From Pogonophryne albipinna (lineage: Eukaryota; Chordata; Actinopteri; Perciformes; Artedidraconidae), in the NCBI GenBank assembly GCA_028583405.1, contig JAPTMU010000091.1, forward strand, positions 309,401 through 373,400: a stretch of 64,000 nt of DNA, read 5' to 3'. The first letter of the stretch is position 1. The number at the start of each line of letters is the position of its first letter. The notes under the pieces are model-generated. The model had not been told where the DNA came from, did not search any database, and saw only the letters and a list, made by a program, of their open reading frames with translations. Position numbers and translations under genes: made by a program. Of this stretch, positions 12,907-48,600 are shown piece by piece.

Positions 12907-13455
12907 CTCTACGGCATACCATCCAACCTAATCAATAAACTCCAACATATCCAGAACTCTGCTGCCCGCCTCCTCACCCACACCCGCTCCCGAGACCACA
13001 TCACTCCCGTCCTCCAGAACCTCCACTGGCTCCCCGTCCGTCAAAGAATCAACTTCAAAGTCCTCCTGATTACTCACAAAGCCCTCAACAATCAGGCCCC
13101 CCCCCACCTCACAGACCTGCACCACCACACCCCTTCCCGCTGCCTCTGCTCATCAGAAGCCAACCTCCTATCCATCCCCACCCGCACCAATCACCGGACC
13201 TGGGGGGACAGAGCCTTCTCTCTCTCGCTCGGGCCACACACACACACACCCTCCCGGTCCTCCCGATGGCCAGTCGGTGCCTGCCGGTGAGCGTGGAAGT
13301 GTGGTCTGCCACAAGCGGACGGCAGGAGCGGAGCTGTCAGCATCAGCTTGTAGATGGTATTTTAAACTCGATGCGCTCTGAAACTACGGGGCGGCCGAGG
13401 ACAAAAAGTACACATGCGTTAATCGCGTTAAAATAATTAGTGGAGTTATTTTTTT

Positions 13456-14285
13456 TTTGCTCAGGAAGACAGGGGAATTCAGACCCATTCTAGATCTCCG
13501 CGGCCTGAATCGTCATATTTCCTGCAGGAAAGTCTGCATGTTAACTGTGAAACAGTTACTAGGGCTTGTGCAGCCAGGCGATTGGTTCACCACCATCGAC
13601 CTGAAAGACGCGTACTTTCATGTGGAAATTGCTCCAGAGCACAGAAAGTATCTGCGTTTTGCCTTCCAGGGGATAGGCTGCCATTCGGCTATTCCCTATC
13701 CCCACGCACATTCAGCAAATGTGTGGCCACAGCGCTTCAACCGCTGCGCACGCAGGGCATGAGAGTTTTCTTTTACATAGACGACCTCATAGTCATGGCT
13801 GGGTCTCGGGAAACAGGCAATGTTTTGCACAGCACAATTGATCACACACCTGACCAAATTAGGTTTTGAGATCAATTGGAAAAAGAGCAACCCCATACCT
13901 CACCAACAGGCGTTGTATTTGGGTATGGTGCTCGATGCAGACGCGCTGCGTGCCACCCTGTCAGAGAGCAGACGTGCGTCCCTTCTCCGGGCGGTGCACA
14001 GGCTGCGACAGGGAGCGACAGTGACAGCTTTTACTGTCATGCAGACACTGGGTCTCATGGCGGCTGCTCATATGGTGGTCCCGCTGGGGTTACTACATAT
14101 GCGCCGCCTGCAGAGGTGGTTCTCCAGCCTGTGTTTGGACCCCAAGAGGCACAAACGACGGCTGGTGACCATCCCCCCCTCAGTGGAGGGCAACCTCTGG
14201 TTTTGGGGGTCTCCGGACCACCTCCGGAGGGGGTCTCCACTGGGACGGGTGACCTCCTACATCAGTGTTCACGGACGATGACTTT
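13456..14285 (+). pseudogene. DIRS-type retrotransposon reverse transcriptase fragment
   Basis: The frame begins KTGEFRPILDLRGLNRHISC and continues through WFTTIDLKDAYFHVEIAPEH, then, after a frameshift near 13680, LPFGYSLSPRTFSKCVATAL, the active-site box FFYIDDLIV, and after a second shift near 13830-13860, LTKLGFEINWKKSNPIP, QALYLGMVLDADALRATLSE and a connection/RNase H-proximal region. This fits DIRS1-like polymerases of fish. The methyltransferase and tyrosine recombinase are absent, and the fragment ends where it would enter RNase H (about 14285). It is a dead partial copy with two frameshifts. Confidence 0.8.
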
Positions 14286-20585: not shown

Positions 20586-20711
20586 GTGGAGCCATTGCCA
20601 GGAGTGGAGCCATTGCCAGGAGTGGAGCCATTGCCCAGCGTAGAGCCATCAATGAGCGTGGAGCCATCACTGAGCATGGAGCCATCACCAAGCAACGAGC
20701 CATCACCCAGC
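20586..20711 (+). repeat. 18-bp coding minisatellite (VEPLPG / VEPSxS repeats)
   Basis: About seven units of GTGGAGCCATTGCCAGGA and variants encode VEPLPG, VEPLPS, VEPSMS and similar, immediately after a splice acceptor. Units diverge towards the 3' side. The stretch links the Lys-rich exons to the first C76-like domain. Confidence 0.8.
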
Positions 20712-20732
20712 GTCATAGTGGATGTTGATGAT

Positions 20733-22210
20733 GACAACAGATGGAGCAAAGGTAAGGGCTATGCTTGCATGTGTTCAGAAAAAGTGCAGTTGGCTGTTGT
20801 CGCAGGGACTGATGTGAGGTATGCATCAGTTTCTGACGATAGAATATCTGTTGCATGTTCTATAGCGGCTGCGATCAAACATTTGATTGCGCCTGTGTGT
20901 ATGTGGAGCAGTACAGATATCGATGCCATACGTGTTGCAGGGTCAAAGCTTAACTCGTTTGTATTAGGGGAAGCCCATAAAATGAATGTAAAGCCAAATA
21001 ACTTGCAGGTTGGTTGAGCAGACCAGTGTGTTTGGACGTAAGTGGAACTTCAATATGGGCCTGCCAGTGTACGGCGAATATAATTTGTCTGAAGGGGATA
21101 AGGTATTGTCGGAGAAGCTGCTTGAACACTTATCCAGGGATGGCATGTGTCTGTTTAACCTAAACTCCGCAGCCAGTGCAATTATTAAACACAATGACTA
21201 TTGTAGTCGTTGATTGTGGCACACGTGGTGCGTCTGGGTTAGCATCCAGTGTTGGCACATCTGTAGCCGTGTTCAACACATGCCCTAATGACCTGATGCT
21301 TTACATCAGGAGTCTCAAGAAGTCATTGAAAACAGAGGTTTTGCATAACAAGCCTTTCTGTGAAAGCAGCTCAAGTTAATTTGGAGACGGCTAGAGTCAT
21401 TTCAGACAGTGATGGGGACACGTGTGTCAGGGGAATATTCAGTCAGGGTGACCAACGGTTTAAATATGCAGGACTTCAGTGCATGGCTGTAAGTTTGGTA
21501 GGCATAGCAAAACACACAGTTGACAGCGTGTTTACATGGCGGTCCGACCACCTGGATAAAGTTGTTCTTGGTGACAATCTGTACACCTCCCTGCGTGACC
21601 AACAAGGTATCAGTGGCGGATACAAACTACTTTCGGTTCCAGATCTGCCCAAGGAGACCATTATCGACGGACAAAGATTTCTGTTTGAATACAGTGACTT
21701 TGTGTCTGGAGATGTGGTTGAGGGGGATCTCATTGATGAGGGTGTGCACACCACTCTAAAATACGGACTGGAAAGGATGTGTACTAACAATGACACATGC
21801 TTTCTGACAATGAATGGCGGCACATGTGCCATCATTGGTCAAGATGGACACTACGCAGCGGTCGACTCCCATGCACGCAGTGCGTCTGGGATGAGCGATG
21901 GCGAGGGGCGTAGTGTTGTTTTGTATTTCAGAGGCCTTGAAAACGTGTTTGAATACATATGGACATTTGCAGCGTTCCTCAAGAAGTCTCAAAAACAGTT
22001 TGAGATCGCTGGTGTCCGAGTCACTCAAATAGGCCCAATAGAAAACAGTAATCTGTCTTTGGCTCCAAGAGTGACTCCCAAACCGACAGAGACTGATTTG
22101 GGTTGTAGTTCAGCTATTCAGTCCACACTTGGCTGCACCAACATTCAGATGGGTGCAAAGCGTAAGATTCGTAAGGGATCTTCTGCTTGCAAAAAAATAA
22201 AAAAAGAGTG
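20733..22210 (+). pseudogene. Tandem C76-like cysteine protease domains, the first lacking the catalytic residues
   Basis: Domain 1 (20733-21350) reads VAGTDVRYASVSDDRISVAC, then VFGRKWNFNMGLPVYGEYNL and IVVVDCGTRGASG. Domain 2 (21360-22210) reads FKYAGLQCMAVSLVGIAKH, LGDNLYTSLRDQQGISGG, CFLTMNGGTCAI and AAVDSHARSASGM. Domain 2 has the expected Gln-Cys and Asp-Ser-His motifs. Aligning the two on the IAKH/AIKH anchor puts Ser where domain 2 has Cys, and DCGT stands where domain 2 has DSHA, so the nucleophile and His are both replaced. Frameshifts occur near 21005, 21200 and 21350, and an A-run near 22190-22205 separates this frame from the OTU frame. Such domains resemble viral deubiquitinases. 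Confidence 0.65.
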
Positions 22211-22211
22211 A

Positions 22212-22990
22212 TGTTACCGCAGTTAATTCAGACGTTGTTTTTGTCAAAGAAGTAACAAGTGAACGACTGCAGTTTAATCCTCTTAGTAATCAACTTGCAC
22301 AAGCTCTTTGTGACCAGTTACATGTGCAGTCAGAGAAAGTAGATGTTGTGTCTAAACAAATTGGTTTGTTAGGGGCTCCATGTCTCAATGACAAAATAGA
22401 GGGTGACGGGAACTGTTTCTTCAGAGCAGTGAGTCAAGCTGTGTGTGGTACACAAAGGCAGCACACAATAATTAGGCGTGCAGTGGTTCATCAAATGCAG
22501 AGCAATGCTGTGACTTGTGAGCGTATTTTGACCTCCTCCATGTCAGAATACCTCAGCACATCCAAAATGCGTGAGGTTGGCAGTTGGGCAACAGAATTAG
22601 AAATTCAAGCAGCAGATTGGTTTGGAGTTAATATATTCACATATTGTGATCCACGCTGGCTTAAATATAGTTGCGAGAACGGGCAGTTGTCTAATCAGGG
22701 GGTTTATTTAGAAAACTGCAATGGTAACCATTATGAGACTGTTGTTGTTGTGGGTGTTGCAAAGTGGATACTTCGTGTTCAAGACTGTACAATGTCAGAC
22801 GGACAACTAGAGGCAAAAGGAGGGTTACGGAACAAACGCATGGTACATCGTCTGCTGGGGACACAGATTGTGTGGAAAAAAGTGATGCAAGTAAAATCAC
22901 TCTTAAATTTAATCCATTGTGCAATGAAGTGCAAAAAACACGATGTGCAGGGACCTACAGTAACTAGGTGCTCAAATACACTTGTAATTG
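22212..22990 (+). pseudogene. OTU-family deubiquitinase domain of the Helentron
   Basis: From about 22212 the frame reads SDVTAVNSDVVFVKEVTSER and leads into KIEGDGNCFFRAVSQAVCGT, the OTU catalytic Asp-Gly-Asn-Cys motif. GSWATELEIQAADWFGVNIF follows, then the C-terminal catalytic His in NCNGNHYETVVVV. The essential Cys and His are present over about 150 clean residues (22324-22790), so the domain itself is intact. Behind it, frame changes around 22790 lead to a segment with KITLKFNPLCNEVQKTRCAG. OTU domains occur in the Helentron class of Helitrons. Their role is not known; removal of ubiquitin from host or element proteins is the usual inference. Confidence 0.8.
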
Positions 22991-23278
22991 TGCAATGCTT
23001 TCAAAAGAAAAAATATACTTGAAACACTGATAAAAATCATTTTGAGCCAGTGGTTTGTATCATACCTTATGATAAACAAAGGTGCTTTAAATTGTGTAAA
23101 GTGGGTGGTTCGTAAGAGACACGGTGTATGTGTAGCAGTGTTGATATCTGTACTGGGAAGGGTGGGGTTAAAAAGACTGCAGAGTGTTGCAAACAGCTGC
23201 AGTCGACAGATTTAAAAAAGAGATACAGGTCACACATTAAACTGTATTATAAAAGTGACACCATGTAGCAGCAAAGGA

Positions 23279-23641
23279 TCAACAGGTTATCAAGAGAGTC
23301 AGGTTTTCATCAGAGTGGAGGTTTTGCCTGTTCATGTCAACCTTTGTAGGCTTAACTTCATCATCATAATCAATCCACCCGTAGTTGATGGGTGTGTCAT
23401 CCTCACTACGGTTGAAAGTGGAGCTTTGCGCTGGTATAAATGACACAATACAGTTAATCTTGTAATAATCATATGCGACAGCCCCCATGAAGTCACTGAG
23501 TTTGAAGATCCACTGGTAGTTGGTATCTGCTTTGGGCCCCACATCGAAGCCATCCATCTTGCGTAATACCACGTGATGTAGACCGTCTCTGCGCCTGCGC
23601 GGCGCCCTTCTCCGGGCTCTCATTCTCGGGCGGGAGATCAC
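23279..23641 (-). pseudogene. Circovirus capsid gene, N-terminal half
   Basis: The frame starts at ATG 23641 on the minus strand with an arginine-rich stretch (MISRPRMRARRRAPRRRRDG). In circovirus capsids this region binds DNA and directs nuclear import. The shell region follows (WIFKLSDFMGAVAYDYYKIN; SFIPAQSSTFNR). About 120 codons are open, then the frame stops at the boundary with the Helentron. The rest of the capsid is on the far side of rep. Only this half retains the natural start. Confidence 0.8.
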
Positions 23642-23695
23642 TGTCCTGCGTCGTGCTCCTCCTCTTTCTCTGGAACCTATAAGACAAAAAACGTT

Positions 23696-23757
23696 CCGAG
23701 GTTGCCGTTAGTATCTGGAACCATGGCACCAGCACCAATCACCATGTCCAACCTCGG
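23696..23757. promoter_or_regulatory. Candidate relic of the circovirus replication origin
   Basis: Inverted repeat CCGAGGTTG (23696-23704) / CAACCTCGG (23749-23757) lies in the intergenic region between the rep and capsid start codons, where the circovirus origin stem-loop is expected. The enclosed sequence includes TTAGTATCTGG, which matches the first six bases of the TAGTATTAC nonanucleotide (TAGTAT). The loop is longer than in living viruses, so this is only a candidate. Confidence 0.35.
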
Positions 23758-23769
23758 CACCTTGGAACC

Positions 23770-24731
23770 ATGGCTCCAACTCGGTCTAAACCATCATTTT
23801 TGCACAGCAAAAATGATCATCCCTCAACTAAAAGGGATAACCCCTCTAAGCGATGGTGTTTCACTCTGAATAATTACACCGAAGCTGATCTGGAGCCGAT
23901 TAAATCCAAGCTAACCGAAGCTACATGCCTGTATGCTATCGTTGCTAAGGAGACCGGAGCTAACGGTACTCCGCATCTTCAGGGATTCATAAACCTGATA
24001 AAAAAGGTACGACTTTCACAAGTAAAAGCCTTTGTAACTACCCGAGCCCACTTGGAGCAGGCGAAGGGCAGTGATGCCGACAATGAAAAGTACTGTTCTA
24101 AGGACGGAGATATTTACCTAGCCATTGGTAAACCGTCAGCGTCTGGAAAGCGGACCGATCTCGATGCAGCCGTTGAGATTTTGAAAAATAACGGTGGGAA
24201 CATGTTCGAACTAGCCAACCAACTGCGGCTGTCTACATTCGATATGGGCGTGGCTTCAACAACTGGGTGGATACAGCGTGAATCCAGAAGCCACGTGACT
24301 GGAAGACCAACGTCATCGTCTACGTAGGTCCTCCAGGATGTGGAAAATCTCGCACATGCGCAGACGCTTTCCCTGCCGTCGAGAACGTCTACTACTAAAC
24401 CCGCGGGGAGTGGTGGGATGGCTACTCCGGACAGGAAACTGTCATAATGGATGACTTCTACGGCTGAATGAAGTATGTTGAGATGTTACGAATCTGCGAC
24501 CGCTACCCCCACCGTGTCCCTGTGAAAGGTGCCTTCATCCAGTTTATGGCTAAAACCCTGTGTATCATCTCCAACTCCCCCGTGGATCAGTGGTATAAAT
24601 TCGACAAGTTCGACCCCGCTGCCCTCATGCGGCGGGTTAATGTGTACAAAATGTGGAATGGAGCCAACGACACCTTTGAGGAACTGAAAGACACACCAGC
24701 GTACAACCCAACTTTACCGTATCATTTTTAA
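23770..24731 (+). pseudogene. Circovirus replication-associated protein (rep), broken
   Basis: Rep starts rolling-circle replication by nicking the origin and also has a helicase. Visible motifs in order: RC motif I FTLNNY (about 23862), motif II PHLQGF (about 23980), motif III YCSKDGD with the catalytic Tyr (about 24093), Walker A GPPGCGKS (24327-24350), Walker B VIMDDF (about 24442) and motif C ISNSP. Total span of 962 bases fits the family. Breaks: a frameshift near 24240 separates the endonuclease half from the helicase half. The helicase frame then carries in-frame stops at 24279-24281, 24396-24398 and 24465-24467. Both halves are otherwise well preserved, so insertion is not extremely ancient. 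Confidence 0.9.
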
Positions 24732-24843
24732 TAAAAATTGTCAAAGTTAAACATTACATCTCATGTCATTTTTATAACACATTGGTACGTTAAGGGAGCA
24801 AGCCGTTAGGCGAAGGGCATGCTTGCACAGCGGGGAATCGAGA

Positions 24844-25103
24844 TTACTGTAAGGTTAGCAGACTCTTGAATTTCATCCAGGCTGTAATTCGAACCATGTA
24901 CGTTCTGGGCTCTGTTGCTGGTTCATGCCATACCTTGAGCCCGTAATGTAACACACTTTGTCCCTGTTCACTGTCTAACCAGTTACTCTTCCCCGCTTGT
25001 GCCCCACTGACAAGGTAGTACTTCGGCACGTAAGTACGGGTAAACCCCTGTTTACCCTTCCATTCCCTGGATGTTGAATGTCCGTAGTATGGTGGGACAT
25101 TTG
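24844..25103 (-). pseudogene. Circovirus capsid gene, C-terminal half
   Basis: On the minus strand, from about 25103 to the stop TAA (24844-24846), the frame includes PTNVPPYYGHS, KGKQGFTRTYVPKYYLVSGA and HYGLKVWHEPATEPRTYMVR, then ITAWMKFK. The pattern of a GLKVW strand followed by YMVRITAWMKFK near the C-terminus fits the last beta strands of a circovirus capsid. It lies tail-to-tail with rep, as expected. It completes the N-terminal half found at 23279-23641 on the other side of rep. The junction with Helentron sequence is near 25105. Confidence 0.7.
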
Positions 25104-25701
25104 TGGGTGTCTTGAGCTTTTACACGACAGGCAACAGCATTGCATGTTTCAGGACACATGTCTGATGCCTGTTGATGTTGGACAGGAAGTGTTGGATCAG
25201 TATTTTGATAGTACATTACATGTCGCTCCAGCAGAGGGTAATAGTCCTGTGAGGCTGTGAGCAGACATTTCCAACAAAGCAAAATGCTTTCCTGTATTGC
25301 TCCCACTGGGCTTTAACACCTACCAAGATAACATTATCACGCTATTTTAATATGCGTGTTTTAAATGCTGATGTTAGGTTTGCACAAAATATAGAATACA
25401 TTTTTTATGCTCAGTATTTGTCTGAGGTGCAACAGGTATTGTCCAGTGTGTCTATTGCATTGTGAAAAGGCAAAGCAGGCTTTCCATCCAAACCGATGGA
25501 AGATCATTTGTTGAATCAGGAAACCATAAGAAAACTGTTGCAATTTGATGATGGCTTTCGTTGACTCTCACCTATTAGAGTACTGCAGCATTTTGGCAGC
25601 GCGCACAGAATGACCTCCTAGCTTGTGTGCGTACCTGGTTTTGTTCATTCTCTTCGGCTGATCTTCGGTGGGCAAATCTACTCAACACTATTTTAAAACA
25701 G

Positions 25702-27149
25702 TAAGGCAAGGCAAGTTTATTTATATAGCACCTTTCAACAAAAGGCAATTCAAAGTGCTTTACAAAAAAAACGAAAGACATTCAGAAAATGGCATTTAAA
25801 ATCAGTCATTAAAAAGAAAAGATAATAAAATAAACATTAAAAGAAAAAATACATGGATAAAAGTTACAGTGCAGTTTAAGATGTGAATAGTTCAATTAAA
25901 AGCAGCGACAAAAAGAAAAGTCTTCTTGCTGGATTTGAAAGTAGTCAGAGTTGCAGCGGACCTGCAGGTTTCTGGGAGTTTGTTCCAGATATTTGGAGCA
26001 TAATAACTGAACGCTGCTTCTCCATGTTTAGTTCTGACTCTGGGGACAGAAAGCTGACCAGTCCCTGAAGACCTGAGAGATCTGGATGGTTCATCATTTA
26101 GCAGGAGGTCAGAAATGTATTTTGGGCCTAAACCATTCAGTGCTTTATAAACCAGCAGCAGTATTTTGAAATCTATTCTTTGACACACAGGAAGCCAGTG
26201 TAAAGACTTCAGAACAGGAGTGATGTGATCCACTTTCTTAGTGTTAGTGAGGACTCGAGCAGCGGCGTTCTGAATCAGCTGCAGCTTTCTAATAGATTTT
26301 TTAGTGAGACCTGTGAAGACACCATTGCAGTAATCCAGTCTACTGAAGATAAAAGCATGGACAAGTTTTTCCAAATCCTGCTGTGACATTAGTCTTTTAA
26401 CCCTAGATATGTTCTTTAGGTGATAGTAGGCTGATTTAGTAACTGTTTTAATGTGACTGTTGAAACTCAGGTCAGAGTCCATGACTACACCTAGATTTCT
26501 GGCTTTATCTGTTGTTTTGAACATTGCAGACTGAAGCTCAGCGCTAACTTTTATACGTTCTGCCTTGGCTCCAAAAACCATTACCTCAGTTTTATCTTTG
26601 TTTAATTGGAGAAAGTTCTGACACATCCAGTCATTGATTTGTTCAATGCACTTACTCAGTGTTTGAATTGGAGCATAGTCTCCTGGTGAAATTGTTATGT
26701 AAATTTGTGTGTCATCCGCATAGCTATGGTAACTTATTTTGTTGTTCTTCATTATCTGAGCCAGTGGTAGCATGTAGACGTTAAAGAGAAGAGGCCCCAA
26801 GATGGAGCCTTGAGGTACCCCACATGTCATATTTGTCAACTCAGATGTGTATTTACCTATAGAAACAAAGTTGTTTCTGTCCTTTAAGTAGGATTCAAAC
26901 CAATTTAGAACTGTTTCCGAAAGTCCCACCCAGTTTTCCAGTCGGTCTAGTAATATGCTGTGGTCAACAGTGTCAAACGCAGCACTGAGATCTAATAATA
27001 CTAACACTGAAGTTCTGCCACTGTCTGTGTTTAAGTGGATGTCATTGAAGACCTTTACAAGAGCAGTCTCAGTGCTGTGGTTTGGACGAAAGCCTGACTG
27101 GAACACATCGAAACAGTTATTTAAATGCAAGAAATTACTCAACATTACT
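25702..27149 (-). mobile_element. 5'-truncated L2-type LINE inserted in the Helentron
   Basis: On the minus strand this runs from about 27149 to a typical 3' tail (inverse of aaggcaagtttatttatata, about 25706). The 5-bp sequence AACAG borders both sides (ends of about 25701 and 27151) and is a plausible short target duplication. Removing it joins the Helitron N-domain pieces LLNTILKQ and EDLDWADRC. The element is 5'-truncated, as usual for LINEs, and its reading frame has no lesion. Confidence 0.85.
25892..27145 (-). CDS. L2 LINE reverse transcriptase ORF2, C-terminal 417 codons, uninterrupted
   Basis: Reverse transcriptase domain in order: DVFQSGFRPNHSTETALVKV, LVLLDLSAAFDTVDHSILLD, CGVPQGSILGPLLFNVYMLP, active site YADDTQIYI, LQLNKDKTEVMVFG, then the thumb and C-terminal part (FSRLDYCNGVFTGL; IQNAAARVLTNTKKVDHITP; LHWLPVCQRIDFKILLLVYK). 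The polymerase would copy element RNA at a nicked target. The endonuclease and the first fingers motifs are missing through 5' truncation, so the copy cannot move alone. No stop or frameshift occurs in 417 codons, which suggests it is the youngest layer of the stack. Confidence 0.9.
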   Translation of the reverse strand: MLSNFLHLNNCFDVFQSGFRPNHSTETALVKVFNDIHLNTDSGRTSVLVLLDLSAAFDTVDHSILLDRLENWVGLSETVLNWFESYLKDRNNFVSIGKYTSELTNMTCGVPQGSILGPLLFNVYMLPLAQIMKNNKISYHSYADDTQIYITISPGDYAPIQTLSKCIEQINDWMCQNFLQLNKDKTEVMVFGAKAERIKVSAELQSAMFKTTDKARNLGVVMDSDLSFNSHIKTVTKSAYYHLKNISRVKRLMSQQDLEKLVHAFIFSRLDYCNGVFTGLTKKSIRKLQLIQNAAARVLTNTKKVDHITPVLKSLHWLPVCQRIDFKILLLVYKALNGLGPKYISDLLLNDEPSRSLRSSGTGQLSVPRVRTKHGEAAFSYYAPNIWNKLPETCRSAATLTTFKSSKKTFLFVAAFN

Positions 27150-27290
27150 CAACAGGTAGAACACAGACCGCTGAAGATTTAGATTGGGCAGACAGATGTG
27201 AACTCTTGCGTCGTAATCCTGTGACAGCGGCGAGAATGTTTGATTTTTAGATGGAATTGTTTTTTGAGCGAAGAGTTCTGGTAATTATTG

Positions 27291-39537: not shown

Positions 39538-41035
39538 TGTCCAACTCCCTCCTTAGACCCCAAGAAAAATGAAATGACGTTGAGTGATAGCTATCATAGT
39601 AGTGTTTTTACTATCACTCACATATAACAATTCTAATACACATCTTCAGTAGTAATCCCAGGAGTCTGATTGTTTCGGCTTATTATAACTAAACAATCTC
39701 CCCCCAGGATCGCCCTGCAAGGTGATCAAATCCAAGCAGTGTGTATTATAGGAACATGTAGCTGTGCGTGTGAGTTTTCAGTATTCAGGAGGATCTGCAG
39801 CTATACGCGTGAGCAAGAGAGATGCATTCGCTGCGCTGCATCAGGACAGAGTGAGCCGGAAAGGGCTTCCACACGCTGTTTATATAGAGGGGTAGGAGGG
39901 GCTTATTTCCCATGTAACTTTCGTGAAGCCTCCGTATGTCACGGTGAGCAGGTGAGTATCCAGTTTTTTATTAATCCTGTTTTTGACCCCAATAAAATGT
40001 TCATTCCAAATTGTTGTCTCTGTATTTATTTACAATTCACGTGTTCTCTAAAGTGGGCCTCCATTTAATTATTTCAGGCGTGAAGAGGAGTAAGCACGTG
40101 GGCGTCCATTTTAGGTTATGGCCTGGAAAAGGGGTCGGTTAGGATTAGCGTTCGATTGAGGGCGAGAGAGTATCAGGCAGCGACCCCTGAGGGGCCATCG
40201 GAGAGAGCCAACCTACCCCAGAAATGAGAACATGGGGCACCGGCTGCGTTAGGGAATAAGAGGCTTGGATCCTAAGATCGAGTGCTCGGGCCATCCTTGT
40301 TCACCACGAGGCAGGCCAACTCTCACCTTAGGCCCCAAGAAAAATGAAATGACGTTGAGTGATAGCTATCATAGTAGTGTTTTTACTATGATTCACATAT
40401 AACAATTCTAATACACATCTTCAGTAGTAATCCCAGGAGTCATTGAATGTTTCAGCTTATTATAACTAAACAATCTCCCCCCAGGATCGCCCTGCAAGGT
40501 GATCAAATCCAAGCAGTGTGTATAATAGGAACATGTAGCTGTGCGTGTGAGTTTTCAGTATTCAGGATTCTACATCACAATTCTTCATCATTGTAACATG
40601 TAGCTGTGCGTTTGTGCTTTCAGCATTCAGGAGGATATCAGAGACGAGTAAGCAGGAGCGATGCCTTCACTGCCATGCATCAGGACTGAGTGAGCCGGAA
40701 AGGGCTTCTGCACTCTTGTATATATATGTGTGGGAGGAGCTTATTTGTCTGTGAGTTTGTGAAGCTACCGTATGTTCCCGTAAGCAGGTAAGTTAACATG
40801 TATTTTCTTAATCCTATGTTGGACCTTTGTAACCCCAATAAAATGTTCATTCCAAATTGTTATGTTGTCTCCTTATTTATTTACAATTCACGTGTTCTCT
40901 TAATTAATTTCAAGAGGGCCGCCATTTTAGTTTTAAGGCACGAGGAGGAGTAAGCACGTGGGCGTCCACTTTAGGTTACGACCTGGAAAGGGTTTGATGG
41001 TTAGGATTCTAATTATAATGAGGGGGAGAGTATCA
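39538..41035 (+). repeat. Satellite block 1: one A unit and one B unit (~0.78 kb each)
   Basis: The hairpin marker TGAGTGATAG lies at 39581 and 40356, a spacing of 775. Unit A has the body ctatacgcgtgagcaagaga and tail cgacccctgaggggccatcgg; unit B has atcagagacgagtaagcagg and the tail ending in agtgggccgccattt. Each unit contains a TATA-like word (tttatatagag or gtatatatat), a GT donor-like junction (agcaggtgagt or agcaggtaagt) and AATAAA. The block starts inside a B tail and ends at about 41035, in unrelated sequence. Confidence 0.8.
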
Positions 41036-41194
41036 CAGACTCTAGAATCGTCACTGTCGATGGGGATCAAAGCTGTCCGGTCCCACATGCCAAGTAATAG
41101 CCAGAAAGCCGCGGCGTTTAAGTCCCGACTCTCCCGATAGCCAATCCGTGCCTCCCCTGACCGCACACCGCTGCAGTGCAGACTCTCTGCACGG

Positions 41195-41515
41195 AGGAGC
41201 AGCGGAGTCCGGGCGATGCTGCTCCTCCAAGGAAGAGACACACGATACACAAACTATATCCGGTCCCAGAGATCTGCTATTTTAAAGTAAAGTCAACACA
41301 CATCGACCCTAAATATAGTCTATATTAACAACGAGAAAAGTCTTAACATATATATCGTTTTTTGTAAACATATGACAAATGTGCGAGGGTGATGACGTCA
41401 GAACATCGTCCTCTGTGCCGGGGCTGTTTATTGGTCACATACTGGTTTCTAATGGTTTCTGAGGAGTTTTACTGGAATGAAAGAGCACAGAGTACAGAAG
41501 CAACAAAGCAGCAGA
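41195..41515 (+). repeat. Dispersed repeat R1, copy 2
   Basis: The reverse complement of 1-475 with an internal deletion of about 115 bases. It starts at gcacggaggagcagcggagt and ends at gagtacagaagcaacaaag. It follows satellite block 1 after about 160 bases. Confidence 0.75.
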
Positions 41516-42639
41516 CTGCATTAAACCTGACCTTGACAGAGAGGTTGAAGTTCATGTGGAAAGGAGGCTTCAGTAGTCTGTCTGTTGTATCTCTTGGGAA
41601 CAATGCCTAAATCAAATACTACTTTCTAATAAACCTTGCATTGGGTTGGTCTCACAATTAATTCTCTTGTGCTTTGTTTTATCTGAATTATGACAAGGAG
41701 TTATCATAAACTGTTTAGTTGTGCTATTTTACAATCAATACTGTATACAGCAGCAACGTGCAGTCAGGGGAGTCAGAGCCTCACCTGACATACTCCAATG
41801 TAACGGAAAAACAACTAAAGAAAAACTAAATAATAATAAAATGTCTCCACTGATCTGTGTTGTAAGTGTGCTTTCTGTTTGATTCCAATCGCTTTTTATA
41901 GTCAAAATCAGCAAATTTGCCGAGCTCCGCTACAACTACTGGGAGCGATGAGAAGTGAGGCAGGGACGAGCTCTGCCTCACGTAACCCCACAGTCAACTG
42001 GCTGGAACGCGGGCACTGATTTTGTGAGCGCGCTCCAGCCAATTACTGTGGGGTAAGGTGAGGCACAGATGAACTCTGTGTAACCGATGTGGTTAAGCGG
42101 TCTCTGCGTTGTGGTGTTAATGGACGAGACCCGAGCCAGCGTAAAGTTGAGACGATCTCTGTTTAATGACTGACAACAGATAAAACGATCAGTTTTATAT
42201 CAATTTCCCCAATGACTCCTCTCACATGGAACATTTTACGAAAAGGCAGAGGAAACGTGAGGGACACAATATATAGGGGGGAAAGTCCTCACAACAAAAA
42301 ACTCTTGAGCACAGCGACCACACTTCAGAGGTTCCGCCCACTGATCTCCAACCTTGCCAGGTATTTAACATTCAATAGAATGAAGAGCACAGAATAAAAT
42401 AATATAAAACACAGAATTTGTGTGATTATACAAAATGAAATTAAATAAACCCCACTGCATATTTACATCCGTTACATCTGCCTCACCTCAGATGCATAGT
42501 AGTGCAAAAGAAAATGAAAAGTGTGACTTCATTCTTTTGGGGGTGGGTTGCGCTAGTGGATTGTCAACGGGGGAGCCTCGCTGCGGGGAAATTCTACAGA
42601 TGGCCAGTCTACCCCTGGAAAATGTATATGCACACGTTA
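41516..42639. other. Repeat-derived sequence, no gene
   Basis: cagcaacgtgcagtcaggggagtc at about 41751 resembles one end of a fish non-autonomous hAT-type element; a partner (tctgcctcacctcag) may lie at about 42478. At 42565-42590 the words tgtcaacggggg and cctcgctgcgggg recur from the 33.7-34.6 kb element. No coding sequence. Confidence 0.35.
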
Positions 42640-42720
42640 TTAATAAAAATGTAATTTAATTTTTATTTTGTAACCCTCGAGTGGGGGTCGCGACCCCCAC
42701 TTTGGGAACCCCTGCCCTAG
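42640..42720. mobile_element. hAT element end fragment
   Basis: GGGGTCGCGACCCCCACTTTGGGAACCCCTG is the inverted form of the common hAT end CAGGGGTTCCCAAAGTGGGG, which also occurs at about 61256. The opposite end was not identified. Confidence 0.5.
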
Positions 42721-42862
42721 ACAATGAATGGGGCTCTGGCTTTCTGCCTTATTTCTATTACAGTCCGATAGAGGTAAAATAAACAATGGCATACTGGTAT
42801 TGTCAGTGTAGAAACACGTCAACAGTGATTTACTGTAATGCTCATGTATTCTTTCCCCCCAG

Positions 42863-44076
42863 GTTACGGAGCCTTTGGAAATGGTTGGGATGGACTTGGT
42901 GGGTAAACTCACAGTAACAGATGGTGGCACCCAGTACATATGTGTAATGGTTGACTATTTCACCAAATGGGCAGAGGCCTACCCACTAAAGAGTAAAACA
43001 GCAGAAGAGGTGACCAATTGTATCCTTGATTTCTTTTACAAATGTGGTGCACCTCAAAGACTGCTAACAGACCAGGGCTCAGAGTTGTGCAACAAGGTAC
43101 AGTGTTGATGCAGTATGAATCCCCAATATGTAACTGTAGTTGCTGTGCTAACCTATTGCTTGTTTGTCCTAATGATAATAGCAAGGTCAACTCTGGCCTG
43201 TGTGAGAGGCTGGACATAAAGAGAAGCCTGTGCTCCGCCTACCATCCACAGACCAATGGCCTTGTGGAGAAACTGAACGGCACTATCCAGAGGTATTGGT
43301 TTTCAGTACCTGATGGAATTCACGCTCTTCATAGAATAACAAACACATTTCCTGTTCCTATGTGAACAGGTAATCAGTAATGATATGTTGCTTTATCATA
43401 CATGAGAACCCATATTCTCTCCTGCTTCCTCATACCTATACTTGAATTCTGCATTTTAAGGTCGTTGAACAAAATGGTGGCTGGTCACCCCAAACGTTGG
43501 GACCAGGTGCTTCAGTCCACCATGTTTGGTCTTCGGACCAAAAAACAGCTGACCACGAAATACAGCCCGTATTATTTGATGTTTGGGAGGGAGGCTAGGT
43601 ATCCTTCAGAGGTGCCAAAGGAGTACGAGGTAAGATGTTCTAATGTTGTCATCCTTTTTAAACGTTTTCATTTGGATCACCTGTCTTCTAAAATTCTAAC
43701 TGATTTGTTGCAGGTCAAAGAAGACAAAGTCTGCAGGCTGGTCGAAAGGGAGGACATCTGCGAAGGATTGAAAAATCAGGGGGCTGTATTTACAGAAGTG
43801 AAAAAATATATAAAAAGAAGCCAGGACAACGTCCGCAAAATAAAAGTAAAAAGGGGCCAGGAGGACAACTTCAAAGTAGGGGATCCGGTGTTACGGAGGA
43901 ACGTAAGACAGGAGCAGAGAAAAGGGGGCAAGCTGGAGGATGACTGGTTGGGACCCTACAGCATCCTGGAACTAGAGGGGAAAAGGCCATTCTTGCTAAG
44001 GGTACCAAAAAGCTGCAGACAAATATTGATCACATGACACATTATTTCCAGCCAGAGGAGCCACATTTAGAGCGAG
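42863..44076 (+). pseudogene. Gypsy/GIN1-like integrase gene, copy 1 (core and C-terminus)
   Basis: Exons 42863-43096, 43186-43292, 43461-43629 and 43714-44076. The integrase core reads EMVGMDLVGKL (first Asp), VDYFTKWAEAYPLKSKTAEE, RLLTDQGSELCNK (second Asp) and CSAYHPQTNGLVEKLNG (Glu), with exactly 35 residues between second Asp and Glu. SLNKMVAGHPKRWDQ and YLMFGREARYPSEVPKEYE follow. The C-terminal exon has DPVLRRNVRQEQRKGGKLED and WLGPYSI. A frameshift near 44005 separates this from IDHMTHYFQPEEPH. All three catalytic residues are kept, but the N-terminal exons with the HHCC domain are missing, replaced upstream by a hAT fragment. Phase-compatible introns inside an integrase point to a Ginger-type DNA transposon or a domesticated gene, not a retrovirus. 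Confidence 0.7.
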
Positions 44077-44245
44077 ACATTTAGAGCGAGAGAGACATTT
44101 AGAGCGAGAGACAGTATAGCGACAGATATAATAGTGAGATTCGACAGAGAAAGATCGGTTGTGCGTGAGTGAGTATATGTGATAAGAGTGTTTGTCCTTG
44201 TGAGTGTGTTGTGTGGTAATTTAGTGAGTAGTTGTTGTTTGCGCG

Positions 44246-44248
<3 letters not shown>

Positions 44249-44292
<44 letters not shown>
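44249..44292. repeat. (TG)n microsatellite in the 5' region of integrase copy 2
   Basis: About 21 TG units. Just upstream (44066-44110) a short direct repeat, acatttagagcgaga, occurs two to three times. Confidence 0.9.
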
Positions 44293-44294
<2 letters not shown>

Positions 44295-44334
44295 CATAAG
44301 TGTAGGGCTAAATAGTAGAGAGGGCCAACAAACC

Positions 44335-46100
44335 ATGGAGGCAGACCTTGTGAAACAACTGATGGATTTTCATATCCGCCATATCTATCCTGAAGGCTTG
44401 GTATCAAGAGAAGAGCTGAGTCCTTCAGGATTAAAGGTAACCATTTCAGACATGTGGTCTTCAGAACATCATCTGCTATGATAACACTGTTAATACATCA
44501 TATCATATCAATACCAGATGGCGACCTGCACTACATATGCAGGAGGGGAAAAAACAGGACTGAGCGCCTTGCAAAAGTGGTCTTATCAACTAAAGAAGCC
44601 AACATGCTCTTCGAAGAGTTCCATTGTAGCCAAATTGGTGGACACCTTGGAATGGAAAAAACTCATCTGGCCATCATTCAACGATTTGATTGGCCTGGCA
44701 TGACGGAGGACATCCGCAAGTGGGTGAGTTCAAAATAATGAGGTCAATTACACATTATGGTACAACAGTGCAACACATCAAAGTTTATAGTGTTTTTGGT
44801 TCAGGTTCTTCAGTGTCCCCAGAGCCAATCAAAGAGGGCCTTTATCAAAGAGAAGGTCGAGTACATTCCTATTGAGATCCAAGGAAACATTTTGCAGACA
44901 GTTTCAGCTTTCAAACATGTCAACAGTAATGTACTGCAATGCTCATGTGTATGTGTTTCTTCTCAGGTAACAGAGCCTCTGGAGCTGGTTGGCATGGAGC
45001 TAGTGGGTAAACTCACAGTAACCGATGGTGGCAATCAAAACGTGTCGTGGTTGATTATTTCACCAAATGGGCAGAGGCATACCCACTTAAAAATAAAACA
45101 GCAGATGAGGTGACCAAGTGTATTCTTGATTTCTTTTACAAATCTGGTGCACGAAAAGACTGCTAACAGATCAAGGCGGGGAATTTTGCAATAAGGTACT
45201 ACTTTGAAGCATTATGACTCCCCATTATGTAACTGTGCTAACTTATTTCCTGTTTGTCCCAATGTTCACTTCAAGGTCAACTATAACCTTTGTGAGAGGC
45301 TTGGCATCAAAAGAAGCCTGTGCTCGCCGTACCATCCACAGACCAATGGGCTGGTGGAAAAATGAAATGGCACAATACAAAGGTATATTTGTTCATATTA
45401 CAACAAACATTACTGTTCCTATATTAACTAATCAGAATTGATACCTAAAACAACAAGAGTAAATAAATCAGCAGCTTCATCATATATTAGAAACCAACTT
45501 CTGTTCGACCTTCTTGTGTTTGTACTTTACCTGAATGTAGGTCCCTGAACAAACTGGTGGAGGGTCAGCCCAAACGGTGGGACCAACTCCTCCAAGGGAC
45601 GATGTTTGCTCTTCGGACTAAGCCTCAGTTGACCACAAAGTTCAGTCCTTAATATCTGATGTTTGGGAGGGAGGCGAGGTACCCGTCAGAGGTGCCCGAG
45701 AAGTACGAAGTAAGATCTGCTAATGTTCTCATCCTTTAGAATGTTTTTTATTTCAAACATCTGTTTTCTCTACATCCTAATGGTTTTCTGTGGCAGAAGA
45801 CAAAGTCCGCAGCATGGTGGAAAGAGAGGAACTCTTCGAGGGACTCAAAAGACAGGAGGCAGTTTTCAACGAGGTGAACACCAACATTAAAAATAGCCAA
45901 GATAAGGTCCGCAAAAGAAAACTAGACCGGGCAAGTAGACCATTTAAAAGTGGGGGATTTAGTTTTAAAAAGAAACAAACGTTTAGAACAAAGAAAAGGC
46001 GGAAAGCTGGAGCCAGACATGTTGGGACCATACCGGATTGTAACAAAGTACACCTCAAAGTATGCATTTCATTAATAACTAACATGTTTTTTTTACAGTA
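44335..46100 (+). pseudogene. Gypsy/GIN1-like integrase gene, copy 2 (all exons, broken)
   Basis: Exons: 44335-44436 (MEADLVKQLMDFHIRHIYPE), 44518-44723 (HHCC-type domain: EEFHCSQIGGHLGMEKTHLA, RFDWPGMTEDIRKW), 44805-44876 (VLQCPQSQSKRAF, supplying the Cys pair), 44967-45195, 45276-45382, 45541-45709 and 45797-46058 or beyond. This copy shows the full gene order. Lesions: the donor after exon 3 reads AT, not GT; the first catalytic Asp is Glu (GMELVG); a 4-base deletion at about 45035; a 1-base deletion at about 45152; stops at about 45363 and 45650; a frameshift in the last exon. The two deletions are shared with copy 3. Confidence 0.75.
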
Positions 46101-46612
46101 ATCCGAGACATATGGGCAGGGAGGAGGAAGGAGACGCTGCGGGCCAAGTATGGTCCATAAAAGGTCTACAGTGAAAATCTTTTGGTCTTGGCCCCGGGAA
46201 AGGAGTTGGAGGGAGAAGTAAGCCTACTTTCTAAGAACAATGTACGTATGCAAACTGATCATTCTCTAGAAAATTGGTTAAAAAGATACTGTTGTATTTA
46301 TAGATTGTGAATGCCTATCTATCGTGGATTGGGGCCAAAGCTGGGGTATACATTTTTGATTCCTATTTGATGACTTCCCTCTGGCAAGGAACCCACAAGG
46401 GAGGGTTAAGAAAGGTGACTAGAGTAGGACTAGAAATAAGTGTTTATTTGAACATATGTACTGATGTATGTACAAATATTTTTGTGAGGGGGGAGGAGAC
46501 AACACAGGGCACCAGGTGCACACAATCAACGGCAACTGACATGGGGAAAGGGGAACACATTTCAAAATAAAATACAATAAACACTACATCTATAAATTGT
46601 ATAAATCCGAGA
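46101..46612. other. 3' flank of integrase copy 2
   Basis: The phrase taaaaagatactgttgtattta (about 46279) recurs at 59080 behind copy 3, so both belong to the duplicated unit. No further gene. Confidence 0.45.
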
Positions 46613-47748
46613 ATGGGAGCTCTCACAGGTGCTCAAGTGACCGCCGCTCAACTCGCGGGGACACGGACCCTGTGCGAACGCTGGGGTGTTCGGAAGACTT
46701 GCCGGGGCCGGAGGGCTCACCAAAAGCATGCTTGGGCTGATTGACATACCACCATTCACCGCTCAAGCAATGACACATCACGAGCTTGATTTCGCTGGTC
46801 TGATGACAGCAAGCGGGATATGCAGTCTGATTGCTAAGAAGGCTGACCAGAGAAGACAGCTACTGATCCTCGAAACAATGGCCCCTTGTCTCCCGGTGGA
46901 CAAACTAATGACTCAGCGCGAGGCACGTGATGCTCTGGAAGTGATACTTGGACCTCAAGGGGATTTGAGGATGAGTGCGTGGTTTCAGAGTTATGCTGCG
47001 ATCATGATCCCTGGAGCTGATGTGTGGGGAGCTGCAACGGGGGAATGGGCGGCTACTGTGACACTCGTACAGAAAGTAGGGCACATTCAGGCAGCGGTTA
47101 TGAGAGATGAGCAGCAATCACGAGACAAAGTGTTGTACTCCATTCTGCTTTGCATGGTCTCATTCGCTATGAGAGGGGACATATCACAAAAGAAGCTGGC
47201 CAAATTTCAGCCAGACTTGTTAACGACCATGCCCTGTGTGGCTAACTTGACAAGGGATGATGTGGCACTGACCTGGCACAATTTCGGACACTACATCGAT
47301 AATCGGTCAATCGGAGCAGTTCTCGCTCACTGGACTGCATGTCTCCCTGGTGGGTGTGTGAGGCGATTAGAGACCATCATCTGTTTCCATGGCCATTGGT
47401 CCAAAGGTTGTATCATACGGAATGGACCGCAGAATCTGAATGCCCTGCAGGTTGTGGCCGCTAACCCACACTATGGTTACAAGGGTGACACCACAGCCGT
47501 AAAGTCTGCTAATTATCGGAACATCTCATGGATCTGCGGTCGACTCTTGATCAGCCTGGGCAACGACTCATTGAAGGATTACCGCGGTTTCAGACCCTCG
47601 TACCAAAGTAGCTGTCGAGAAAATGATCTCTGACTACATCACCCACGGGATGGGAGATGATGCTGATATGGAGACTGACTACACTGATGATGAGATTGTG
47701 GGAACTCAGAGAGCAATTCCTCTGTGTCGTGATCACCTGCGTCGATGA
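46613..47748 (+). pseudogene. Endogenous nucleoprotein-like gene of a negative-strand RNA virus (chuvirus-like, tentative)
   Basis: An intronless frame of about 378 codons with two frameshifts (near 46690 and 47591). It starts MGALTGAQVTAAQLAGTRTL. The central 46686-47590 frame is open for about 300 codons, with features such as SAWFQSYAAIMIPGADVWGA, GDISQKKLAKFQPDLLTTMP, DDVALTWHNFGHYIDNRSIG, AVLAHWTACLPGG, NPHYGYKGDTTAVKSANYRN and SWICGRLLISLG. The end (VAVEKMISDYITHGMGDDAD ... TDDEIVGTQ) is acidic. All-helical composition, length and the YGYK...YRNISW pattern resemble nucleoproteins of chuviruses, whose endogenous copies are frequent in fish. This is recognition by eye, and other viral or host origins remain possible. 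It lies between integrase copy 2 and repeat R2. Confidence 0.5.
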
Positions 47749-47993
47749 ATTATCTATACCTCCTACTCGGGGAAATGACCACTCGTGTGTCATTCCCATG
47801 GTTCATGATACGGCGAGAGTTAAAGGACCAATTCAGTGCCATTATGCTAGAACCTGCCAAAAACTGTCCAGAAATATCTACATTCCTATCCGAGATACAC
47901 ACTGCCTGCTTTCCAGAGGAACAGAGACTGTACATTGCTAATAAAAGGTACACAAAAAAACAATTTTTTTTACTTTCTGGAGGGCGGGGCTAA
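47746..47993 (+). other. Second small reading frame overlapping the nucleoprotein-like stop
   Basis: The stop TGA of the preceding frame overlaps an ATG (ATGA). The new frame reads MNYLYLLLGEMTTRVSFPWF and LSEIHTACFPEEQRLYIANK for about 70 meaningful codons before an AATAAA-like word and A/T runs (47938-47972). It could be the true C-terminus of the nucleoprotein-like protein after another frameshift, a second viral gene fragment, or unrelated sequence. Confidence 0.3.
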
Positions 47994-48072
47994 TAAAAGC
48001 AAATTTGAAATATGTCCGCAATCATAAGAGCAATGTGTATACCGCGTTTTGTGAATATTGGAAAAACTATCA

Positions 48073-48287
48073 CAAACATTTTTGTTACTTCAGTTTTACG
48101 ACACATTTTTTTTTTTTGACTGACAAGATTATCTTTTAAATTGACAAACATCATGTGTAATTCGTGGCACAATTAAAACGGGATCGAAAGATAATCTTTC
48201 TCTCTCCATTGACTTCAATACATAATGTTAAGGTCCCATGCAGGTCCACCGGAAGGGGAGGGACTTCGCCACTCTATAGGTTCCTCG
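48073..48287 (-). repeat. Dispersed repeat R2, copy 2
   Basis: The reverse complement of 18458-18650, ending with gacttcgccactctatagg. After it (48288-48345) comes a GC-rich, palindrome-rich stretch (gcacttcgtgctagg, cctagcgctccgtgctcggg). Confidence 0.7.
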
Positions 48288-48600
48288 CACTTCGTGCTAG
48301 GACGCCGTTGGGTCCTAGCGCTCCGTGCTCGGGCCCTAATGACTCTACACTCTATTTATATTGTATTTAAGTGCCTATGTTATGTTCTAAAAATAAATGT
48401 TCCTTTCACCCTATATGTATTTCTCATATTTCCTATAAAAAACATTTTTTTTTTACCACAAACGGGCATATGATCATTTCATTGACCTTGATTTTTTATA
48501 TGAAAATGAAATATTTTTGGAACATTTCTCAAAAGTAAAACAGTATTGTTATGTCCTCCAATAACACTCTAGGGTTGAAATTTAGAATTTCAAAGTATTT
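48288..48600. other. No gene seen
   Basis: Palindrome-rich short block, then AT-rich sequence leading into satellite block 2. Confidence 0.4.

What the first reader, a model, noticed from the sequence alone, without database searches (positions are those of the whole stretch)
23260..25105. Near-complete, permuted circovirus genome in the germline
Seen: rep on the plus strand with all replication motifs and Walker boxes, flanked by the N-terminal half of the capsid gene on the left and the C-terminal half on the right, both minus. The total length of about 1.85 kb equals a whole circovirus genome. Most reported endogenous circoviruses are rep fragments; a full circle, opened inside the capsid gene, is rarer and records how the circle was linearised. 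Rep has one frameshift and three in-frame stops; the capsid halves have none that I can see.
Basis: partly seen in the sequence, partly recalled or inferred. Interest (0 to 1): 0.92.

Follow-up and report, generated by a model that had tools for sequence, protein, structure and literature searches.

The report
Fossil circovirus inside fish transposon
An almost complete but broken genome of an old circovirus, probably of a fish, sits in the chromosome, cut open in the middle of its coat-protein gene and embedded in the wreck of a rolling-circle transposon; it is a well-preserved new example of a known kind of viral fossil.

Summary
A broken rep lies on the plus strand (PF02407 4e-23; HUH motifs, Walker A/B). 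A capsid N-terminal half lies to its left and a C-terminal half to its right, both minus. The halves match complementary parts of one capsid profile (positions 2-100 and 124-222 of 224). A degenerate origin hairpin lies between the 5' ends of rep and cap. Rep has one frame change and three in-frame stops; the capsid halves have no internal stop. The nearest listed protein by identity is from the icefish Chaenocephalus aceratus (82%; tree support 100/98).

New here: both flanks belong to one degraded Helentron-like transposon gene. The right junction lies within 25,108-25,114, the left only within 23,211-23,399. About 440-480 codons of the transposon gene are absent at the insertion. No junction repeat exceeds chance. 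Both ends lie inside cap, away from the origin, so joining of a broken circle is likelier than Rep-directed integration.

Full-length endogenous circoviruses are known (tandem copies in cyprinids, PMC6372831), so this is a new member of a known kind. The host genome could not be searched, so copy number, orthologues and exact closure of the circle stay untested.

The parts
20586..23211 (+). Left flank: degraded Helentron-like (rolling-circle transposon) gene with an OTU domain; the stretch 22,966-23,211 is only weakly matched
   Evidence: PF02338 1.3e-9 in 22,201-22,932; tblastn: icefish P0187 88% over 295 aa, P0121 60% over 177 aa; 22,969-23,211 against P0122 30%, E 4e-4
23211..23399 (.). Left junction zone; the host/virus boundary is somewhere inside, with an imperfect 17-nt tandem repeat at 23,283-23,325
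   Evidence: last weak host match 23,211; last capsid residue aligned to Pfam about 23,399; tandem repeat
23279..23653 (-). N-terminal half of cap (Arg-rich start, first Met at 23,623), no internal stop; the part below about 23,399 is unaligned and may reach into host sequence
   Evidence: PF02443 9.1e-9, profile 2-100/224; 0 of 7 controls; weak without the Arg-rich end
23672..23769 (+). Degenerate replication origin: hairpin arms 23,693-23,707 and 23,755-23,768, TAGTAT at 23,709, three GGAACC hexamers (23,672, 23,717, 23,764)
   Evidence: DNA fold of 23,676-23,800 z -2.88, 0 of 200 shuffles as stable; positions
23770..24228 (+). rep, N-terminal HUH endonuclease part, open
   Evidence: PF02407 4e-23; PDB Rep chain 3.4e-27; 82% to P0002 over 96 aa
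24229..24731 (+). rep, helicase part, broken: frame change near 24,228, stops at 24,279, 24,396, 24,465; natural stop at the end, AATAAA at 24,730
   Evidence: pieces apart against P0002: 15 of 16, 31 of 37, 56 of 87; PF00910 2.9e-5; positions
24844..25110 (-). C-terminal half of cap, no internal stop
   Evidence: PF02443 3.4e-10, profile 124-222/224; 1.1e-9 with the query trimmed to 25,104
25108..25114 (.). Right junction, bracketed to about 6 nt
   Evidence: capsid profile match starts at 25,108-25,110; transposon match starts at 25,114 in 7 of the 8 homologues (of 10 aligned) whose match reaches this end; the eighth, P0128, starts at 25,132
25114..25710 (+). Right flank: the transposon gene resumes, with frame changes and stops
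   Evidence: 77% to Doryrhamphus P0123 over 73 aa from residue 957 on; frames and stops
25711..27154 (-). Interruption of the transposon that holds a reverse transcriptase (418 aa open frame 25,892-27,148), read as a LINE to the right of the virus
   Evidence: PF00078 5.9e-29; transposon matches stop at 25,710 and resume at 27,155
27155..27280 (+). Transposon gene resumes beyond the LINE
   Evidence: P0123 76% over 37 aa, P0136 74% over 42 aa

Best explanation
This is an endogenous circoviral element. A circovirus, probably of a fish, entered a germ-line nucleus; its double-stranded replicative circle (or a copy of it) was broken inside cap and the linear piece was joined into a chromosomal break in a Helentron-like transposon copy, where about 440-480 codons of the transposon gene are now absent. 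It is a non-functional fossil that has since gathered stops and a frame change in rep. Shown: gene content, orientation, collinearity of the capsid halves, origin remnant, transposon gene on both sides, right junction to about 6 nt. Inferred: break inside cap as the opening event, end-joining, germ-line status, age.
For: Complementary capsid profile ranges on the two sides of rep. One transposon gene on both outer sides, resuming at 25,114. The origin is internal, with both junctions in cap, about 0.3-0.5 kb away on one side and 1.4 kb on the other. Rep groups with the icefish Rep at 100/98. No direct repeat between the junction zones beyond chance: longest 6 nt, 463 of 500 shuffles at least as long. 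CpG observed/expected 0.83 in the element against 0.55 and 0.43 in the flanks and 0.60 in the window, which would fit a virus younger than the transposon copy.
Against: The left junction is not fixed (23,211-23,399), so a small loss or overlap at the opening point cannot be excluded. The absent transposon codons could have been lost before the virus came in. An assembly chimera was not excluded; there were no reads. Lesion density does not show that the transposon copy is older: the right flank has at least 5 lesions in 597 nt against 4 in 1,524 counted nt of the element (P 0.08), but the left flank has only 2 frame changes and no stop in 1,232 nt against P0187, and with both flanks P is 0.39. 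A higher CpG value may simply be a property of the virus.
Confidence: 0.88

Rival explanations
1. The virus was opened and inserted by its own Rep (HUH nick at the origin and strand transfer), and the cap ends arose by later rearrangement or from a greater-than-unit concatemer cut back at both sides.
For: [quoted passage not shown] cyprinid endogenous circoviruses are tandem full-length genomes (PMC6372831), so concatemers do enter genomes.
Against: Neither end is at the origin; no repeat between the junction zones beyond chance; one copy only in the window.
Confidence: 0.07
2. The Helentron-like transposon captured the virus and carried it as cargo, so that the element exists as several copies.
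For: The element lies within the transposon gene; Helentrons capture gene fragments (PMC4067079, passages).
Against: It interrupts the transposon's own gene; this copy is broken; one copy in the window. The icefish Rep (P0002) and the icefish transposon protein (P0187) are listed on contigs of different length (120,373 and 118,969 bases), so no link is seen there.
Confidence: 0.04
3. An exapted or still selected viral gene (capsid halves kept open).
For: No stop inside either capsid half; all four lesions fall in rep.
Against: The chance that all four fall in rep is 0.16; cap is split in two and its start Met is uncertain; rep is broken four times.
Confidence: 0.01

Closest known systems
CVe-Cypriniformes (common carp, golden-line barbel), PMC6372831
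   Same: Endogenous circovirus of fish with both rep and cap, full length
   Different: Those are tandem complete genomes; this is a single, cap-opened unit in what looks like a spiny-rayed fish
CVe-Perciformes (for example black bass, tomato clownfish), PMC6372831 and PMC6069186
   Same: Endogenous circovirus of perciform fish
   Different: Those were reported as divergent rep fragments; this has rep, origin and both capsid halves
Chaenocephalus aceratus KUCAC02_032140 (P0002)
   Same: Closest listed Rep by identity: 82% (N piece), 84% (P-loop piece), 64% (C piece)
   Different: Open for 271 aa but lacks motif I; what lies beside it was not examined; the divergence is uneven between pieces (N against C, Fisher P 0.007), which fits separate related viruses more than one decayed insertion
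CVe-Viperidae (snakes), as listed in PMC6372831
   Same: Rep and Cap both present in a vertebrate genome
   Different: Other hosts; structure not examined here
P0001, Rep on a 2,118-base JGI contig
   Same: Circovirus-type Rep, 58% over 75% of the query, first in the list by E-value (2.9e-44 against 3.0e-44 for P0002), on a contig of about circovirus size

Membership tests
Circoviridae, genus Circovirus (as an endogenous element) | Rep with HUH motifs I-III and superfamily 3 helicase motifs | tested here: met
   PF02407 4e-23, PF00910 2.9e-5; motif positions
Circoviridae, genus Circovirus (as an endogenous element) | Circovirus capsid gene | tested here: met
   PF02443 in both halves, complementary ranges, 36.4 (barely) and 41.0 bits against the cut-off of 36.2
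Circoviridae, genus Circovirus (as an endogenous element) | Ambisense layout, origin between the 5' ends of rep and cap | tested here: met
   rep + from 23,770, cap - from about 23,653, hairpin 23,693-23,768
Circoviridae, genus Circovirus (as an endogenous element) | Nonanucleotide TAGTATTAC-like in the hairpin loop, on the rep strand (motif and strand rule recalled) | tested here: inconclusive
   TAGTAT at 23,709 on the rep strand, then diverging; no match to TAGTATTAC with up to one mismatch in the hairpin, the only one in the element being at 23,563 inside cap; the loop is long
Circoviridae, genus Circovirus (as an endogenous element) | Unit length about 1.8-2.1 kb (PMC6069186) | tested here: met
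   1.71-1.90 kb, depending on the left junction; met only if the junction lies in the outer part of the bracket
Circoviridae, genus Circovirus (as an endogenous element) | Genome-wide identity to named species (ICTV demarcation, recalled) | not testable with these tools
   four scans of viral contigs gave no relative confirmed by tblastn; whole-genome joining not done
Endogenous viral element | Host sequence on both sides | tested here: met
   transposon gene on both sides; not checked with reads
Endogenous viral element | Orthologue or population fixation | not testable with these tools
   The genome search unreachable in all 12 tries
[quoted passage not shown]
   this part was not seen in the window; the homologue P0136 lists PF03372 (an endonuclease family, name recalled) beside PF14214
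Helentron-borne cargo | Virus carried within transposon termini in several genomic copies | not testable with these tools
   only the window was searched: one copy

The most novel reading that the evidence does not exclude
A rolling-circle transposon (Helentron) took up a whole rolling-circle virus and spread it as cargo in a fish genome, so that the two HUH-type replicons met in one element and the cap-opened form is the captured form, to be found at many loci.
Probability: 0.04. Interest if true: 0.75.

Novelty: new member of a known kind. Interest (0 to 1): 0.42.

Why it matters
Most endogenous circoviruses catalogued in PMC6372831 are rep pieces, and cap fossils were few there, in fish only in cyprinids. 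One that keeps rep, the origin and both capsid halves, with one junction fixed to a few bases inside a recognisable transposon gene, suggests that a circovirus circle can enter a fish chromosome by a break away from its replication origin. It also gives a locus that synteny could date, for circoviruses of what looks like a spiny-rayed fish.

Tried and rejected
Tried without result: relatives of the rep N piece, the right capsid half, the icefish Rep and a 7-Rep alignment in viral contigs (1, 2, 1 and 121 stretches matched a pattern, none confirmed by tblastn). Protein search with the left capsid half (none of 495 candidates). PHROGs (nothing significant). PDB search with the left half (chance-level, unrelated). 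tRNA and Rfam scans (nothing). Target-site duplication or terminal overlap (chance level). Inverted repeats near the left junction are of a quality common elsewhere in the same list and were not used. Selection on cap considered and rejected (P 0.16). Lesion density as a sign that the transposon copy is older: it looked suggestive on the right flank alone (P 0.06 with a rounded length; 0.08 on the counted length) and vanished when the left flank was counted too (P 0.39), so it was dropped. The host species could not be named: the only leads are icefish-like transposon and Rep proteins.

Literature: ten searches (two found no paper). From titles and abstract starts, none of the listings showed a circovirus fossil inside a Helitron or Helentron, or one in an Antarctic or notothenioid fish; most subscription papers are not in that library. 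PMC6372831: passages and its fish section read; PMC6069186, PMC11089739, PMC11521997, PMC11784310, PMC3198968, PMC9741609, PMC4067079, PMC13268160: passages only. Supplements were not read, so this locus may already be in the catalogue of PMC11089739, which lists 1198 circovirus-derived sequences in vertebrates and mentions novel ones in ray-finned fish.

Full report
WHAT IS THERE. Between about 23.26 and 25.11 kb the window holds a rep gene on the plus strand and two capsid halves on the minus strand. The rep N piece (23,770-24,285) matches PF02407 at 4e-23 and the piece with Walker B matches PF00910 at 2.9e-5; Rep chains in the PDB match the N piece down to 3.4e-27. The left half of cap matches PF02443 positions 2-100 and the right half positions 124-222 of 224, both above the family's cut-off, the left one barely. 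Two pieces of one profile, in the same orientation and in the order expected of a circle cut inside cap, are very unlikely by chance. Reversed and shuffled controls of the left half gave 0 of 7 capsid hits.

RESULTS AGAINST. The left half owes much of its score to its Arg-rich start: without it E is 0.12, though still collinear. None of its 495 candidates in the large protein database was significant, and PDB capsids match the right half only at E 0.31. The right half's open frame is not remarkable by length (102 of 1000 shuffles). The capsid match starts 10 residues before the first Met, so the start codon is doubtful. The last rep piece (24,468-24,728) has no Pfam hit and is placed by its 64% identity to the icefish protein.

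STATE OF THE GENES. Rep changes frame near 24,228: the N piece matches the icefish Rep up to 24,225, and a piece in another frame matches it from 24,231 to 24,278 (15 of 16 residues). Stops stand at 24,279, 24,396 and 24,465. The capsid halves have no internal stop. That all four lesions fall in rep has a chance of 0.16, so it is no sign of selection on cap. Three stops correspond to about 4.6% substitutions per site since the gene was last intact (Poisson range 0.9 to 13%), if it was intact on entry; a date would need a rate for the host, which is not known here.

ORIGIN. Between the 5' ends of rep and cap lies a hairpin (arms 23,693-23,707 and 23,755-23,768; the stretch 23,676-23,800 folds with z -2.88, 0 of 200 shuffles as stable) with TAGTAT just behind the first arm and three GGAACC hexamers at 23,672, 23,717 and 23,764, the only ones on either strand of 23,200-25,200. 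The loop is long and TAGTATTAC (recalled as the circovirus motif) is absent from it even with one mismatch, so this is a degenerate or altered origin; the hexamers are only candidate Rep-binding repeats.

SURROUNDINGS. The flanks were searched as a transposon protein, with the viral part left out: 68 proteins matched among 3,923 candidates. Of the 35 that bear an organism name, 31 are fish, 3 a hemichordate (Ptychodera) and 1 a scallop; most of the 68 carry one or more of PF02338 (OTU), PF04843, PF20209 and PF14214. OTU and herpes-tegument-like protease domains in Helentrons, zebrafish ones included, are described in PMC9741609 and OTU-like proteases in PMC4067079 (passages). I call the element Helentron-like on that ground; its endonuclease part was not seen in the window. 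Ten homologues were mapped on the flanks. The left flank matches up to 22,752 well and to 23,211 weakly; the right flank resumes at 25,114 in 7 of the 8 whose match reaches this end. Relative to P0123 (residues 513 to 957) or P0122 (219 to 700), about 440-480 codons are absent where the virus sits. A reverse transcriptase gene, read as a LINE, interrupts the same transposon further right (frame 25,892-27,148), behind which the transposon resumes at 27,155. Capsid similarity starts at 25,108-25,110 and transposon similarity at 25,114, so the right junction is known to about 6 nt. The left one is only bracketed (23,211-23,399); an imperfect 17-nt tandem repeat lies there (23,283-23,325). No direct repeat joins the two junction zones beyond chance (longest 6 nt; 463 of 500 shuffles at least as long).

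HOW IT MOST LIKELY AROSE. Both ends lie in cap and the origin is internal. A Rep-made opening would be expected to put an end at the origin (inference). The simplest reading is a break of the circle inside cap and joining of the linear piece into a break in a transposon copy, with loss of transposon sequence before or at the event. CpG content (0.83 against 0.55 and 0.43 in the flanks) would fit a virus younger than the transposon copy. Lesion counts do not add to this: at least 5 in 597 nt of right flank (3 stops and 2 frame changes; a further stop at the LINE edge left out) against 4 in 1,524 nt of the element gives P 0.08, but the left flank has 2 frame changes and no stop in 1,232 nt, and together P is 0.39.

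RELATIVES. The rep N piece found 749 proteins among 814 candidates, the best 120 listed. The nearest by identity is P0002 from the icefish Chaenocephalus aceratus, on a 120-kb contig: 79 of 96, 15 of 16, 31 of 37 and 56 of 87 residues. In a tree of 64 rows (the window piece and 63 of the 120) they pair at 100/98; their sisters are a Rep on a 2.1-kb JGI contig (P0001), P0022 and a Rep on a 909-kb contig (P0008), with only moderate support (91/73). P0002 lacks motif I. The uneven divergence of its pieces (N against C, Fisher P 0.007) fits two related viruses rather than one insertion decaying in two hosts. The transposon flank is also close to an icefish protein (P0187, 88% over 295 residues), so the window is probably from a perciform or related fish; the species is not established.

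WHAT IS KNOWN. Endogenous circoviruses are widespread in vertebrates (PMC11089739, passages). Complete genomes in tandem are reported from carp and golden-line barbel, older than 39 million years, while those of Perciformes were rep fragments (PMC6372831, fish section read). Another screen found no new cap fossil (PMC6069186, passages); capsid-like and Rep-like elements are reported from the echidna (PMC11521997, passages). This element is therefore a new, unusually complete member of a known kind, unless it is already in a supplement that I could not read.

NOT DONE. The circle was not closed in silico and the capsid halves were not joined, since that would assemble a near-whole animal virus genome. 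The host genome tool did not answer in 12 tries, so copy number and synteny are open.

Noticed in passing
20586-27280: A fish Helentron-like gene with an OTU domain, broken in turn by the circovirus and by a reverse transcriptase gene (418-aa open frame): nested insertions.
   Followed up: partly
22966-23100: A second, weaker OTU C-terminal-like stretch behind the first one (P0121 residues 673-713, 38%, E 0.002), as if two transposon pieces were joined left of the virus.
   Followed up: partly
23283-23325: Imperfect 17-nt tandem repeat at the left junction zone; might be filler from end-joining.
   Followed up: no
39540-53334: A family of 1.0-1.4 kb units repeated at up to 97% identity within 14 kb.
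   Followed up: no
13441-13866: Reverse transcriptase remnant (PF00078 2.8e-8) in a G+C-rich stretch (13-16 kb, 54-56% GC).
   Followed up: no
P0002: The icefish Rep protein is open for 271 aa yet lacks HUH motif I; its locus deserves a look as a separate endogenous circovirus.
   Followed up: no
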